DNA of 27,910 nucleotides, taken from IMG/VR virus record IMGVR_UViG_3300025508_000122, positions 1 through 27,910 of that record; one strand, given 5' to 3'. The notes below the pieces were generated by a model. That model saw only the letters and a program-made list of their open reading frames with translations. It was not told the origin of the DNA and made no database searches. This DNA comes from a virus. The translations under genes were made by a program, and so were the position numbers. Within the stretch, counting starts at the first letter, position 1. Each line of letters starts with the position of its first letter. This document shows, piece after piece, positions 6,973-27,493 of this stretch.

Positions 6973-7020
6973 GTTACTTATAAAAGTAACTCGGTTTGGT
7001 TCTTTGGCGAGTCAAAGAAC
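6973..7020. other. Two tandem perfect hairpins
   Basis: GTTACTT (6973-6979) pairs with AAGTAAC (6984-6990) around a 4-base loop, and GTTCTTTG (6999-7006) pairs with CAAAGAAC (7013-7020) around a 6-base loop. They lie between the terminator of the 167 aa gene and the G-quadruplex. Neither has a T tract on the minus strand, so they are more likely processing signals, protein-binding sites or replication elements than terminators. Confidence 0.6.
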
Positions 7021-7022
7021 AG

Positions 7023-7057
7023 AAAAAAACCTCTATAGAAATAAATCTATAGAGGTT
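7023..7057 (-). terminator. Intrinsic terminator of the 167 aa leftward gene
   Basis: Read on the minus strand, AACCTCTATAG (7057-7047) pairs with CTATAGAGGTT (7038-7028) around an 8-base loop and runs into seven T residues (7029-7023). It starts 8 bp after the stop codon of the upstream gene. Stem, loop and T tract are all present, so this is a confident rho-independent terminator separating that gene from the early operon. Confidence 0.88.
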
Positions 7058-7064
7058 ATAAAAG

Positions 7065-7568
7065 TTATTTAGATAATCTTTCTTTCATTTGTTTCATAAT
7101 ATCTGATGTTGCAGTTGTAGAAACTTTGTTTGTTTGAGACTCTTTATAATCTGCAAACCATTTTTGACCAAAGTCTTTAGTATGTTTGCCATCATTCCAA
7201 GTCCAACCAGTATAGATGTTAAACATTGAAACCATCATATCATATAAGAATAAACCATTATGTAAAGATGCTTCAGCTTTGATTATATTGTTAGGTTTTA
7301 CATCTTCTGATGAATTTTCAATAACTTGTCTTTCAACAAAGTTCTTATCTAATTCATCAAGATATTTAGTTTTAGATGTAAGAGACCAAGCAAGTTGATT
7401 AAGTACACCACCTATAAGATATACTGCATCTTTGTTCCAATATGGATTGGTTTCACCTGACATTTTCTTTTTCTGTTCGATTGGTTCGAATTGTCTAAGA
7501 TCAAGATGTTCTAGTACTTCCATTGTGATTTTGTTAATAACTTCGTTTGAGTTTTTCTTTGTAGTCAT
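7065..7568 (-). CDS. Hypothetical phage protein (167 aa)
   Basis: The start at 7566-7568 has AGGAG in place. It forms its own leftward unit, with the divergent control region upstream and an intrinsic terminator downstream. The sequence is soluble and mixed: a Lys/Glu-rich N-terminal helix (NEVINKITMEVLEHLDLRQF), a helical centre (AVYLIGGVLNQLAWSL), another helix around HNGLFLYDMMVSMFNIYTGW, then a polar Thr/Ser-rich tail. No family or motif is recognised. Separate transcription next to the divergent region suggests an early or regulatory protein, but this is inference from position. Confidence 0.75.
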   Translation of the reverse strand: MTTKKNSNEVINKITMEVLEHLDLRQFEPIEQKKKMSGETNPYWNKDAVYLIGGVLNQLAWSLTSKTKYLDELDKNFVERQVIENSSEDVKPNNIIKAEASLHNGLFLYDMMVSMFNIYTGWTWNDGKHTKDFGQKWFADYKESQTNKVSTTATSDIMKQMKERLSK

Positions 7569-7585
7569 GTCTTTCTCCTAATTTA

Positions 7586-7829
7586 TTGGTTGATGATGAA
7601 AGGGTTGTATCGCATATCGTAAGACGCAAAAGTCAAACAAACTCAGGTGCTAGGTTTACTTAGGACTTGGCATGGCAGATCAGACCTTGCCCCAACATAG
7701 GTCTGCCATACCCAAGTTCTTAGGAAACATTGTCCACTTCCTTAGTTTGTTTGAAGAATAGCCTGAGCAACCACAACACATTCGATATGCTTTTGTGGCT
7801 GATATGCGAAACAAGACTGCATCAACCAA
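7586..7829. other. Large nested inverted-repeat (structured RNA or DNA) element
   Basis: Five complementary pairs nest without crossing: TTGGTTGATG 7586-7595 with 7820-7829; 14 bases at 7605-7618 with 7801-7814 (one mismatch); CAAAAG 7627-7632 with 7790-7795; CAAACAAACT 7634-7643 with 7744-7753; and a central hairpin in which CTTGG 7666-7670, ATGGC 7672-7676 and AGACCT 7682-7687 pair with 7712-7716, 7705-7709 and 7699-7704. A sixth pair, CTCAGG 7642-7647 with 7762-7767, would cross. This much nested complementarity is not expected by chance and suggests a structured RNA, an origin or a packaging site. Confidence 0.65.
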
Positions 7830-7943
7830 GAAATTAGACGAGAAAGATATGACGTCTCGACAAAGAAAAAGTCAAATGAAGTTATGTTTGTGTTGTGTGT
7901 ACTGTGTGTATGTCTTTGATATCATTGAGGAATTGAAATGCCC

Positions 7944-7973
7944 TTGACAAGCATTTGAATAGGGGTTTATAAA
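7944..7973 (+). promoter_or_regulatory. Sigma70-like promoter for the rightward operon
   Basis: TTGACA (7944-7949), an 18-bp spacer and TATAAA (7968-7973) give a near-consensus vegetative promoter. Transcription would start near 7980, only about 14 bases before the TTG start of the small terminase gene, within a leader made of G tracts. It implies the virion genes are read by the host polymerase. Confidence 0.72.
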
Positions 7974-7993
7974 GGGGGGTAAGGGGGGATCTC

Positions 7994-8365
7994 TTGTTAA
8001 CACAGAATAGAATTACAAAGAAACAGAAGCTATTAGTTGATACGATCGTAGCAAGTGGTTGTAGTGTAACTAAAGCTAGTGCCATAGCAGGATACGCAAA
8101 AGGTGAATCAGGAAGAGTGACAGCTAGTAAGACTTTGCGATTGCCTCATATCCAAGAGTATATGCAACAAAGGGTTAGAGAAAGTATAGGATTGAATGCT
8201 ACGAAAGCATCTAATAAGATGTTACAGCTAAGCAGTAGTGCTAAGAGTGAGTATGTTCAGCTTGAAGCTAGTAAAGACATACTAGATAGGGCAGGGTATA
8301 AGCCTATAGAGAAGTCCATGAACTTAGTGACTGGTAATATAAATGTAAGTATAGACTTGACATAG
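7994..8365 (+). CDS. terS: Terminase small subunit
   Basis: 123 aa, a usual TerS length. The N-terminal half carries the TerS helix-turn-helix: KQKLLVDTIVASGCSVTKAS, then AGYAKGESGRVTASKTLRLP with a following helix IQEYMQQRV, the pattern of small terminases that bind the packaging site ('g.s.tkAa..AGYs......ak.Ll..p.i..yi'). The rest is a helical oligomerisation region. The start must be TTG at 7994-7996: the frame closes upstream at 7970 and the first ATG is at residue 57. The ribosome site is the unusual AGGGGGGA. It begins the packaging and structural operon, directly beside the dyad region that may be its target. Confidence 0.85.
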   Translation: MLTQNRITKKQKLLVDTIVASGCSVTKASAIAGYAKGESGRVTASKTLRLPHIQEYMQQRVRESIGLNATKASNKMLQLSSSAKSEYVQLEASKDILDRAGYKPIEKSMNLVTGNINVSIDLT

Positions 8366-8426: not shown

Positions 8427-8495
8427 ATGTGTGCAAGTACTACTACAACACGACCCACACAAACATTAATAGCTGAAAAGGTACGTTATGGCTAA
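8427..8495 (+). CDS. Possible 22-residue peptide
   Basis: ATG at 8427 follows a G-rich site (GGGGG six bases upstream) and reads MCASTTTTRPTQTLIAEKVR before a two-residue end; its stop overlaps the next gene's start by 8 bp. Its 'MC + small/polar' beginning resembles the start of the gene before the portal (MCLPSGR). A longer in-frame start exists at 8370 but has no ribosome site. It may equally be untranslated leader. Confidence 0.3.
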   Translation: MCASTTTTRPTQTLIAEKVRYG

Positions 8496-8790
8496 GACAC
8501 CTGCATGGACAAGAAAAGCTGGGAAGAATCCTAAGGGTGGATTAAATGCAAAGGGTCGTGCCTCATATAAGGGTGGCACATTGAAAGCACCAGTTAAGAG
8601 TGGTGACAATCCTAGACGAGCTTCTTTTTTGGCTCGTATGGCAGGAATGAGAGGTCCAGAGAAAGATGCTAAAGGCAAACCTACTAGATTATTATTATCG
8701 CTTCGTGCATGGGGTGCTTCGAGTAAAGCAGATGCTCGTGCAAAGGCTAGAGCAATATCGAAACGAAACAAAGCAAAGAAAAAGGCTTGA
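8488..8790 (+). CDS. Small basic phage protein (DUF6321-like)
   Basis: 100 aa, very rich in Lys, Arg, Gly and Ala. The segments KNPKGGLNAKGRASY, PVKSGDNPRRASFLARMAGM and GPEKDAKGKPTRLLLSL match a family I remember as DUF6321, found in the packaging regions of many podoviruses and siphoviruses; its function is unknown. The start has AAAGG seven bases upstream. The high positive charge and position between the terminase genes suggest DNA binding or a virion role, which is inference. Confidence 0.82.
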   Translation: MAKTPAWTRKAGKNPKGGLNAKGRASYKGGTLKAPVKSGDNPRRASFLARMAGMRGPEKDAKGKPTRLLLSLRAWGASSKADARAKARAISKRNKAKKKA

Positions 8791-8848
8791 CGAGACTAAA
8801 AGAAAAGTTGAAGTATTAAGGAAACAACTTAAAGAAAGGAAAGCTAAA

Positions 8849-8977
8849 ATGCCAATGGGTAAAGGAACATATGGAACTACTAAGGGTAGACCACCAAAGA
8901 AGAAGATGACTGCAAAGCAAAAGACATTACCTGCTTCTTTACAGAAAAAAATTATGGCATCTAAGAAGAAGAAGTAG
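8849..8977 (+). CDS. 42-residue lysine-rich phage protein (MPMGKGTYG family)
   Basis: Starts at the ATG at 8849-8851 behind AAAGGAAAG and ends TAG at 8975-8977, one step before the next ATG. It reads MPMGKGTYGTTKGRPPKKKM and then Lys-rich repeats, a pattern I recall from small conserved phage proteins that begin MPMGKGTYG near head genes; no function is assigned. The same frame stays open upstream (a charged helix ending LRKQLKERKAK) to inside the previous gene, so a longer form from a non-ATG start cannot be excluded. Confidence 0.68.
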   Translation: MPMGKGTYGTTKGRPPKKKMTAKQKTLPASLQKKIMASKKKK

Positions 8978-9142
8978 ATGGCAGTTAATGCAGCAGGTAA
9001 TTACACTAAGCCTACAATGAGAAAGGCTTTGTTTAATAGGATCAAAGCGAGTAACAAAGGAGGCAGATCAGGACAATGGTCTGCTCGTAAGGCACAGATG
9101 TTAGCCAAACAATATAAGGCTAAAGGTGGTGGTTATAGATAA
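8978..9142 (+). CDS. 54-residue basic phage protein
   Basis: ATG at 8978-8980 directly follows the previous stop; TAA at 9140-9142 overlaps the next ATG (TAATG). The motif pattern NAAGNYTKPTMRKALFNRIK, then GGRSGQWSARKAQMLAKQYK and a GGGY end is one I recognise from many phage genomes, often next to DUF5872-type genes, without known function. It is strongly basic, with Trp and Gln conserved in the centre. It belongs to the run of small positively charged proteins between the two terminase genes. Confidence 0.72.
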   Translation: MAVNAAGNYTKPTMRKALFNRIKASNKGGRSGQWSARKAQMLAKQYKAKGGGYR

Positions 9143-9402
9143 TGGCACTTGCTAAATCACAAAGGTCGCTTCGTGCTTGGACAAGACAAAAGTGGAGAAC
9201 GAAATCAGGTAAACCTAGTACACAAGGGTCAAAGGCAACTGGCGAACGTTATCTACCTGAAAAAGCAATTAAGGCTTTATCTTCCAGTGAATACTCCAAG
9301 ACTACGGCTCTTAAACGCAAAGCAATTAGAGCAGGTAAACAAGTATCTAAACAGCCCAAAAAGATTGCAAGAAAAACGAAAAGCTATCGATCTTATTCAT
9401 AG
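9142..9402 (+). CDS. Small basic phage protein (DUF5872-like)
   Basis: 86 aa. RSLRAWTRQKWRTKSGKPST and ATGERYLPEKAIKALSSSEY, followed by KGKQ/KQPKKIARK-like basic stretches, match the pattern of DUF5872 ('W.tksGkps..tGeRYLP.kAikaLs..ey....r.kr'). The function is unknown; the high positive charge is consistent with nucleic-acid binding. It is linked to the previous gene by a TAATG junction. A shadow frame of similar length overlaps it (9149-9415) but has no such family pattern. Confidence 0.78.
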   Translation: MALAKSQRSLRAWTRQKWRTKSGKPSTQGSKATGERYLPEKAIKALSSSEYSKTTALKRKAIRAGKQVSKQPKKIARKTKSYRSYS

Positions 9403-26188: not shown

Positions 26189-27493
26189 ATGACTATAGCA
26201 TTAAGTGCAAATACTCCACGAGTGAGTTACACAGTTAATCAGGGTGCGAGTCAAACCTCATTTGCTGTACCATTCGTATTTTTTACTGCATCAACAGATC
26301 TCAATGTTTTTGTTGACAATGTTGCACGGACATTTGATGCCAGTACATCAAACACATCTCTATATACTGTGAGTGGTGGCAGTGGTTCTACTGGAACTGT
26401 AACAACTTCTGTTACTGGTGCTACTGGTGGCAGTACTGTTGTCATCACAAGAGCAGTGCCATTGTCTCGTACCACAGACTTTCCAAGTTCAGGTGCATTT
26501 GAGATATCAAAACTAAATACAGAGTTAGATACTGTTACTGCTATTCAGTCTGATTTCAATGATTCTGCATCAAGAGCAATAAGATTACAAGATTCTGACA
26601 GTGCAGTATCTATGGAGTTACCATTACTGGCTAGTCGTAAAGGCACAGTTCTAGGATTTAATGCAAGTACTGGTGCTGCAGAGGCAGGACCTACAATTAC
26701 TGCAGTGCAGTCTTTATCGGCAGTCACAGCATCTATTGCTTTATTAGGTACTTCTGCTGTTGTTGAGGACATGGGTTTACTTGCCACATCTGCGGTCATA
26801 GAAGATATGGGGATATTAGCTACGTCTGCTAACGTAACAGCTATGGGATTACTAGGAACTAGTGCTGTTGTAGCTGATATGGCTTTGTTAGGAACTTCTG
26901 ATGTTGTGGCAGACATGGCATTGTTAGCTACTTCTGATGTAATAGCTGATATGAATACATTAGCAACAAGTGATATAATTACTGATCTTAATACACTAGC
27001 TACCAGTGACATTGTTACTGATATGAATCTATTGGCAACTAGTGATAATGTTACAGCAATGGGTTTACTTGGAACGTCAGGTAATGTTACGGCAATGGGT
27101 TTACTTGGAACAAGTGCTGTTGTTGAGGATTTAGGATTACTAGCTACAAGTACTGTCATTGAGGACATGGGAATACTAGCAACAAGTGCCAATGTAACTG
27201 CAATGGGATTGTTAGGTACAAGTGATGTTGTTACTGATATGGGATTGTTAGGTACGTCTGCAGTTGTAGAAGATATGGGTTTGTTAGGAACAAGTGCTAA
27301 CGTAACAAACATGGCAACATTGGGTGCAAGTGGTGTTGTTGCAAACATAGCCACAGTAGCAGGTGCAAATTCTAACATATCAACTGTTGCAGGCTCAATA
27401 TCTAATGTGAATACAGTAGCAAGTAACATAGCAACAATTTCATCTAAGGCATCTTTAGATGATGCAACTGCCTTAGCAATAGCTTTAGGATAA
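26189..27493 (+). CDS. Tail fibre protein with T7-type N-terminus and 12-residue repeats
   Basis: 434 aa with AAAGG before the ATG. Residues 1-130 match the T7 tail-fibre N-terminal domain that docks to the tail: RVSYTVNQGASQTSFAVPFV, a V/D-rich strand, then VVITRAVPLSRTTDFPSSGA and the helix NTELDTVTAIQSDF. Residues 185-388 are 17 tandem 12-residue repeats (pattern LL[GA]TSxxVxxMx). The end switches to TVAG-type repeats (NSNISTVAGSISNVNTVASN). Such repeats build a long trimeric shaft. No receptor-binding tip is present, so the tip probably lies in the following genes, one of which runs off the window. Confidence 0.88.
   Translation: MTIALSANTPRVSYTVNQGASQTSFAVPFVFFTASTDLNVFVDNVARTFDASTSNTSLYTVSGGSGSTGTVTTSVTGATGGSTVVITRAVPLSRTTDFPSSGAFEISKLNTELDTVTAIQSDFNDSASRAIRLQDSDSAVSMELPLLASRKGTVLGFNASTGAAEAGPTITAVQSLSAVTASIALLGTSAVVEDMGLLATSAVIEDMGILATSANVTAMGLLGTSAVVADMALLGTSDVVADMALLATSDVIADMNTLATSDIITDLNTLATSDIVTDMNLLATSDNVTAMGLLGTSGNVTAMGLLGTSAVVEDLGLLATSTVIEDMGILATSANVTAMGLLGTSDVVTDMGLLGTSAVVEDMGLLGTSANVTNMATLGASGVVANIATVAGANSNISTVAGSISNVNTVASNIATISSKASLDDATALAIALG
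26741..27352 (+). repeat. 17 tandem 36-bp (12-residue) repeats in the fibre gene
   Basis: Seventeen in-frame 36-bp units encode the pattern [LIT]-L-[GA]-T-S-x-x-[VI]-x-x-[ML]-x. Units 1-3 and 11-13 are nearly the same at protein level (LLGTSAVVED, LLATS.VIED, ILATSANVTAM) but differ in many synonymous bases, so the block duplication is not recent or the protein is held constant while the DNA drifts. Confidence 0.9.

What the first reader, a model, noticed from the sequence alone, without database searches (positions are those of the whole stretch)
7586..7829. About 245 bp of nested inverted repeats between the divergent operons
Five complementary segments nest symmetrically around a hairpin at 7666-7716, including a 14-base pair with one mismatch and two perfect 10-mers; a further 6-bp pair could form a pseudoknot. 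The element lies beside the small terminase gene and outside coding sequence. It could be a structured noncoding RNA, a replication origin or a terminase (pac/cos) recognition site. I do not recognise it as a known phage RNA class such as GOLLD or ROOL.
Basis: seen in the sequence. Interest (0 to 1): 0.75.

Follow-up and report, generated by a model that had tools for sequence, protein, structure and literature searches.

The report
Giant antisense hairpin RNA in phages
Beside the DNA-packaging genes of a large group of ocean phages lies a very long hairpin (about 230 to 1,470 bases) whose sequence changes fast but whose two arms change in step, the mark of a working RNA, and one arm is antisense to the start, or the whole, of the neighbouring gene.

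Summary
It overlaps the ribosome-binding site and first 32 nt of the leftward gene (7065-7568, -) and stops before the conserved promoter of terS. Of 164 non-identical relatives, 99 carry a 233-1468-nt imperfect palindrome at the same place, in 37 clusters without mutual nucleotide similarity; none of 277 control stretches does. The cultured Pelagibacter phage Hodr has it too. In about a dozen loci the left arm swallows the entire leftward gene plus terminator, while the right arm is noncoding. Across 24 ortholog pairs 265 base pairs changed on both sides and stayed Watson-Crick; single changes to G·U outnumber A·C 111:19 on the + strand (control 104:89). This asymmetry excludes a dsDNA cruciform or arm-to-arm gene conversion as sole cause and shows selection on a + sense single strand, almost certainly RNA. 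No Rfam family matches. Most likely it is a rightward noncoding RNA, antisense to the leftward gene, with its antisense arm held in an imperfect hairpin, repressing that gene; the regulatory step is inferred. Promoter and transcript are not shown. A pac/cos site or replication origin is not supported.

The parts
7537..7885 (+). whole hairpin, read as a + sense RNA; outermost pairs ATAACTTCG / TGAAGTTAT; 35-nt one-sided insertion in the right arm at about 7755-7789
   Evidence: covariation in its own clade (122 pairs, 29 with changes on both sides)
7537..7692 (+). left (5') arm; antisense to the start codon, Shine-Dalgarno region and leader of the leftward gene
7695..7885 (+). right (3') arm; carries a degenerate copy of the leftward gene's RBS and start (GACGAGAAAGATATGAC), no long ORF
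7666..7716 (+). apical stem-loop; sequences around it (AAGTCAAACAAACTCAGGTG, CTTAGGAAACATT, CCACTTCCTTAGTTTGTTTGA) are strongly conserved within the clade
7065..7568 (-). leftward gene, 167 aa, unknown function; member of a very divergent helical family found beside the hairpin in 89 of 95 loci examined
   Evidence: no PHROG or Pfam match
7020..7057 (-). intrinsic terminator right after the leftward gene (AACCTCTATAGA-TTTATT-TCTATAGAGGTT + T-run): the gene is a monocistronic unit
   Evidence: sequence; same element in 27 of 34 clusters against 19 of 392 control stretches
7944..7972 (+). terS promoter, TTGACA-17-TTATAA, between hairpin and terS; TTGACA...(C)ATAAA is found at this place in most relatives
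7994..8365 (+). terminase small subunit (terS)
   Evidence: PHROG 2538, E 4e-13

Best explanation
The element is a member of a family of giant single-hairpin noncoding RNAs, transcribed rightward (terS sense). SHOWN by comparison: the two arms are kept complementary by compensatory change, and the pairing is selected on the + strand. SHOWN by position: the 5' arm is the exact complement of the ribosome-binding site and start (short class) or of the complete unit with terminator (long class) of the divergent leftward gene. INFERRED: the RNA is a cis-antisense regulator. It is made from a promoter inside or just beyond the leftward gene, its antisense arm is held and protected in an imperfect duplex with the mimic-like 3' arm, and it is displaced onto the fully complementary mRNA of the leftward gene, blocking its ribosome-binding site and/or exposing the duplex to RNase III. 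The leftward gene is so kept low at some stage of infection, probably when the late (terS) operon takes over. My probabilities: selected + sense structure 0.93; it is RNA rather than ssDNA 0.9; cis-antisense repression of the leftward gene 0.5.
For: Strong hairpin in the window. 99 of 164 non-identical terS-adjacent regions exceed the best of 984 shuffles; 0 of 147 downstream and 0 of 130 upstream control stretches do. 37 clusters without mutual nucleotide similarity. 24 ortholog pairs: of pairs that changed, 42% stayed Watson-Crick against 2.5% in control pairings; 265 double changes; WC to G-U 111 against WC to A-C 19, p 5e-17, control 104:89. G-U exceeds A-C in all 14 clusters of those pairs (my tally). 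Without using the second sequence's own structure: 58:7 with Watson-Crick neighbours, 28:0 with two on each side. In the window's clade 29 of 122 pairs show two-sided changes. In 35 clusters the arm covers the RBS/start of the leftward gene by 30 nt or more, and the SD region is the best-paired part, 0.87. In the long class the left end lies 32-101 nt beyond that gene's stop, taking in its terminator. The gene is a monocistronic unit. Arms never exceed 86% pairing, as strand exchange onto a perfect target would need.
Against: No transcript data. No convincing + promoter left of the hairpin; synonymous divergence is lower 0-29 nt left of the hairpin (0.24 against about 0.36 farther out), but one distant bin is as low. 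In one cluster (L201/L213/L220/L231/L297) the hairpin begins upstream of the start codon (L213). Upper-bounded pairing could equally reflect the instability of perfect DNA palindromes. 65 of 164 loci lack a hairpin above threshold, although many of these still fold well.
Confidence: 0.5

Rival explanations
1. A trans-acting structured RNA (double-stranded-RNA-like decoy, scaffold or partner of the leftward protein) whose overlap with the leftward gene is incidental, because the hairpin grew by inverted duplication of the nearest DNA.
For: Same RNA-selection evidence. Length and sequence are nearly free, place and hairpin form are not. Gene family and hairpin travel together in 89 of 95 loci.
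Against: Hairpin ends follow the boundaries of the leftward unit: start region in the short class, terminator in the long class. No RNA-binding signature was found in the leftward protein.
Confidence: 0.25
2. Structured 5' leader of the terS (late) mRNA made from a promoter farther left, controlling late-gene expression or RNA stability.
For: The selected strand is the terS-sense strand.
Against: A conserved TTGACA...ATAAA promoter lies between hairpin and terS in most loci, so terS does not need the hairpin in its mRNA.
Confidence: 0.1
3. Structure of single-stranded DNA of the + polarity (replication intermediate, single-strand initiation site, hairpin used in concatemer processing).
For: G-T is also more stable than A-C in DNA; the tolerance order GG, GT, GA > TT over all sites resembles DNA mismatch stabilities (own knowledge).
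Against: At Watson-Crick-flanked sites C-T is tolerated far better than A-A (11/71 against 1/70), against the DNA order; a 0.3-1.5 kb ssDNA hairpin that tracks a gene unit has no precedent known to me.
Confidence: 0.08
4. Double-stranded DNA element: pac/cos site, origin, or recurrent inverted duplication with arm-to-arm gene conversion and no selection for pairing.
For: Next to terS; long palindromes can arise by template switching (own knowledge).
Against: Strand asymmetry 111:19 with a flat control; no near-identical (young) arms among 99 loci, maximum 85.5%; no shared sequence across clusters.
Confidence: 0.05

Closest known systems
cis-antisense RNAs that form mismatched hairpins and cover a ribosome-binding site (e.g. 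IS10 RNA-OUT, Sok; own knowledge)
   Same: Encoded opposite the translation start of the target; antisense part lies in an imperfect hairpin.
   Different: Here 230-1470 nt in one hairpin, up to the whole target gene; no conserved sequence between clusters; 3' arm is a mimic-like copy of the target; regulation untested.
c4 antisense RNA of P1/P7-like phages (RF01695; listed in PMC2864571)
   Same: Phage-encoded antisense RNA.
   Different: Small, sequence-conserved, targets short stretches (own knowledge); no Rfam match here.
Large ornate phage/prophage RNAs GOLLD and ROOL (PMC12286853; Rfam)
   Same: Large noncoding RNA of phages.
   Different: Those are multi-branched with conserved sequence and form RNA oligomers; this is one rod-like hairpin with conserved shape and place only.
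Eukaryotic hairpin RNAs / young miRNA genes born by inverted duplication of their target (own knowledge)
   Same: One arm antisense to the target gene, the other a decayed sense copy; arms co-evolve with the target.
   Different: Bacterial virus, target adjacent, no Dicer/Argonaute pathway known.

Membership tests
any Rfam 15 RNA family | covariance-model score above gathering threshold | tested here: not met
   0 matches in window; E-value mode over 7400-8100 best E 2.7, 14 bits against 49; 20 related loci gave only one tRNA elsewhere
structured noncoding RNA | compensatory changes and one-strand G-U tolerance | tested here: met
structured noncoding RNA | existence of the transcript | not testable with these tools
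   no RNA-seq of these phages at hand; the SAR11 phage transcriptome paper covers other phages (PMC12753301)
cis-antisense RNA | complementary to the opposite-strand gene's translation start | tested here: met
   35 clusters with at least 30 nt of gene inside the arm
cis-antisense RNA | own promoter and terminator on the antisense strand | tested here: inconclusive
   no clear + promoter or + terminator; weak synonymous constraint just left of the hairpin
cis-antisense RNA | changes expression of the target | not testable with these tools
   needs an experiment
pac/cos site | conserved terminase recognition sequence / DNA ends here | tested here: inconclusive
   no sequence shared between clusters; DNA ends not testable
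intrinsic terminator | short GC stem followed by T-run | tested here: not met
   none found on either strand at 7300-8100
DNA cruciform / gene-converting palindrome | strand-symmetric mismatch tolerance | tested here: not met
   GT 111 against AC 19; GG 26 against CC 8; AG 58 against CT 19

The most novel reading that the evidence does not exclude
A phage equivalent of inverted-duplication hairpin RNAs: a giant hairpin RNA captures the neighbouring gene, from its start region up to the entire unit with terminator, as a folded antisense copy, and for a long evolutionary time the decoy arm follows every change of the gene by compensatory mutation, giving a regulatory RNA defined by shape and place, not sequence, that sequence-based RNA discovery cannot see.
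Probability: 0.4. Interest if true: 0.88.

Novelty: new variant of a known kind. Interest (0 to 1): 0.78.

Why it matters
It would be a widespread RNA class of abundant ocean phages that has no Rfam entry and turned up no description in my searches of an open-access library, with an unusual rule: structure and position are conserved while sequence is not, even where one arm must also encode a protein. It shows that RNA families can be missed by sequence-anchored searches, offers a natural experiment on RNA structure and coding in the same DNA, and is testable now because a cultured phage-host pair (Pelagibacter phage EXVC031P Hodr on HTCC1062) carries a 468-nt, 86%-paired copy.

Tried and rejected
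Rfam in gathering and E-value mode. tRNA/tmRNA. Terminator reading. Divergent-paralogue reading (both arms coding): rejected, since right arms of the long class hold no ORF matching the left protein. Recurrent neutral duplication: rejected, because no young arms exist and the strand asymmetry is strong. First wobble count over all aligned positions (246 GT to 155 AC) was not trusted, because base composition of mismatches alone explains it; replaced by ortholog-change counts with shuffled-partner controls. A version that defines pairs in one sequence only is noisier (196:116) because it includes realigned stretches; the Watson-Crick-flanked version settles it. Position-weight promoter scan found the terS promoter but nothing consistent for the + hairpin RNA. 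Loose and wide palindrome searches and the first Hodr alignment ran into the linear regime and were discarded. A z-score scan of all negative loci timed out and was repeated smaller. Function of the leftward protein: no Pfam, PHROG or PDB profile match worth keeping; AlphaFold gives a helical hairpin (pLDDT 84.5) with only insignificant fold matches (P4 Psu, T4 UvsY). Distant TerL relatives MEP301, Mwe-JY08, Pmp11 and Ss1 have no such palindrome upstream of terS, and VA-RY-3 has only a 127-nt one 1.3-1.4 kb away.

Full report
WHAT IS THERE. The window is a 27.9-kb virus record of a podophage whose large terminase is 65% identical to that of Pelagibacter phage EXVC031P Hodr. Between the leftward gene 7065-7568 (-) and terS at 7994 (+) lies one imperfect hairpin, 7537-7885. 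Folding gives z -7.6 (+) and -7.0 (-), 0 of 200 shuffles as good. The left arm contains the start codon and Shine-Dalgarno sequence of the leftward gene; the right arm carries a degenerate copy of them. A TTGACA-17-TTATAA promoter for terS (7944-7972) lies outside the hairpin and is conserved. Directly after the leftward gene stands an intrinsic terminator (7020-7057, -), so the gene is a unit of its own; 27 of 34 clusters show the same, against 19 of 392 control stretches.

HOW WIDE. Searches with TerL, TerS and the leftward protein gave 169 non-identical regions upstream of terS, 164 of them long enough (600 nt or more). In 99 the best self-complementary alignment within 1.2 kb exceeds the best of 984 dinucleotide shuffles; none of 147 stretches downstream nor 130 farther upstream does. 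For all but one of these (a doubtful one left out), full extents are 233-1468 nt (median 388), 63-85% paired; they fall into 37 clusters whose sequences do not match each other over half their length. Many of the other loci also fold well there. The cultured phage Hodr has a 468-nt copy, 86% paired, 17-484 nt upstream of terS; its neighbouring gene scores 20 bits against the leftward-gene profile. More distant terminase relatives lack it.

TWO SIZES. About 16 loci of the TerS tree hold hairpins of 1.15-1.47 kb. In these the left arm contains the whole leftward gene (about 140 aa) and its terminator; the left end lies 32-101 nt past the stop codon, and the right arm is noncoding. On the TerS tree the long class needs 11 changes, at least 5 forced by well-supported branches, so size has switched repeatedly. 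The leftward proteins form one very divergent family by iterative profile search in 89 of 95 loci (E-values there are from a small, pre-selected set).

WHY IT IS AN RNA. In 24 ortholog pairs from 14 clusters, base pairs shared by both structures show 265 two-sided changes that keep Watson-Crick pairing. Of changed pairs 42% stay Watson-Crick, against 2.5% when partners are shuffled among the same positions. One-sided changes lead to G-U 111 times and to A-C 19 times on the + strand; shuffled partners give 104:89. At sites flanked by Watson-Crick pairs: GT 48 of 122 expected neutrally, AC 1 of 107, AA 1 of 70, GG 9 of 16, AG 20 of 68, TT 18 of 82, CT 11 of 71. The result holds when the second sequence's own structure is not used: 58:7, and 28:0 with two flanking pairs on each side. 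A cruciform forms on both strands and gene conversion copies arms; neither yields G-T without A-C. In the window's own clade RNAalifold finds 122 pairs, 29 with two-sided changes. Single-stranded DNA of the same polarity is not formally excluded, but RNA is far more likely.

HOW IT PROBABLY WORKS. The selected strand is antisense to the leftward gene. In 35 clusters the arm covers at least 30 nt of that gene's start, and the Shine-Dalgarno region is the best-paired part of the arm (0.87), with a dip to 0.66 just before the start codon. Arms are never more than 86% paired, so the perfectly complementary mRNA can displace the 3' arm. This favours a cis-antisense regulator whose antisense arm is stored in an imperfect hairpin. 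Shown: structure, strand, position. Inferred: transcription, repression, timing. No clear promoter for the + RNA was found; reduced synonymous divergence 0-29 nt left of the hairpin (0.24 against about 0.36 beyond) is only a hint, since the bins were looked at afterwards and one distant bin is as low. The upper limit on pairing could also reflect instability of perfect DNA palindromes.

COMPARED WITH THE KNOWN. No Rfam family fits. It works like hairpin-forming cis-antisense RNAs, but is much larger, keeps no sequence, and can hold a whole gene. It differs from GOLLD/ROOL in being a single rod. I found no description in the open-access library; subscription papers and preprints were largely not searchable, so absence of reports is not proven.

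VERDICT. A real, conserved, apparently undescribed hairpin RNA family; mechanism open, with cis-antisense control of the leftward gene the best-supported reading.

Noticed in passing
window 8488-9402: A run of small, extremely basic, Lys/Arg-rich ORFs between terS and terL; DNA of the first (MAKTPAWTRKAGKNPKGGLNAKGRASYKGG...) is 79-89% identical to phages of Pelagibacter, Methylophilales and Synechococcus, one annotated DUF6321.
   Followed up: no
window 26189-27493: 434-aa protein with many copies of a short repeat (LLGTSAVVEDMG/LLATSxVIxDM...), probably a tail fibre or appendage.
   Followed up: no
window 7065-7568 and relatives: The leftward proteins form a very divergent, unnamed helical-hairpin family without Pfam or PHROG match; N-terminal ~28 residues, which overlap the RNA arm, look like a variable linker before a shared helical core.
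   Followed up: partly
window 7944-7993 and relatives: terS promoter region keeps TTGACA...ATAAA followed by G-runs (GGGGGGTAAGGGGGG) immediately before terS in many relatives.
   Followed up: partly
L097, L098, L100, L103 (close TerS relatives): Instead of the large hairpin they carry a short, 113-118 nt, 86-89% paired one at about -205 to -90 of terS; may be a reduced or replaced form.
   Followed up: no
L140, L142, L133, L160, L189 just right of the hairpin: A compact GC-rich stem-loop (e.g. GCCATGCCCTTCGGCATGACC) with a weak T-stretch follows the long-class hairpins; could be the 3' end of the + RNA.
   Followed up: no
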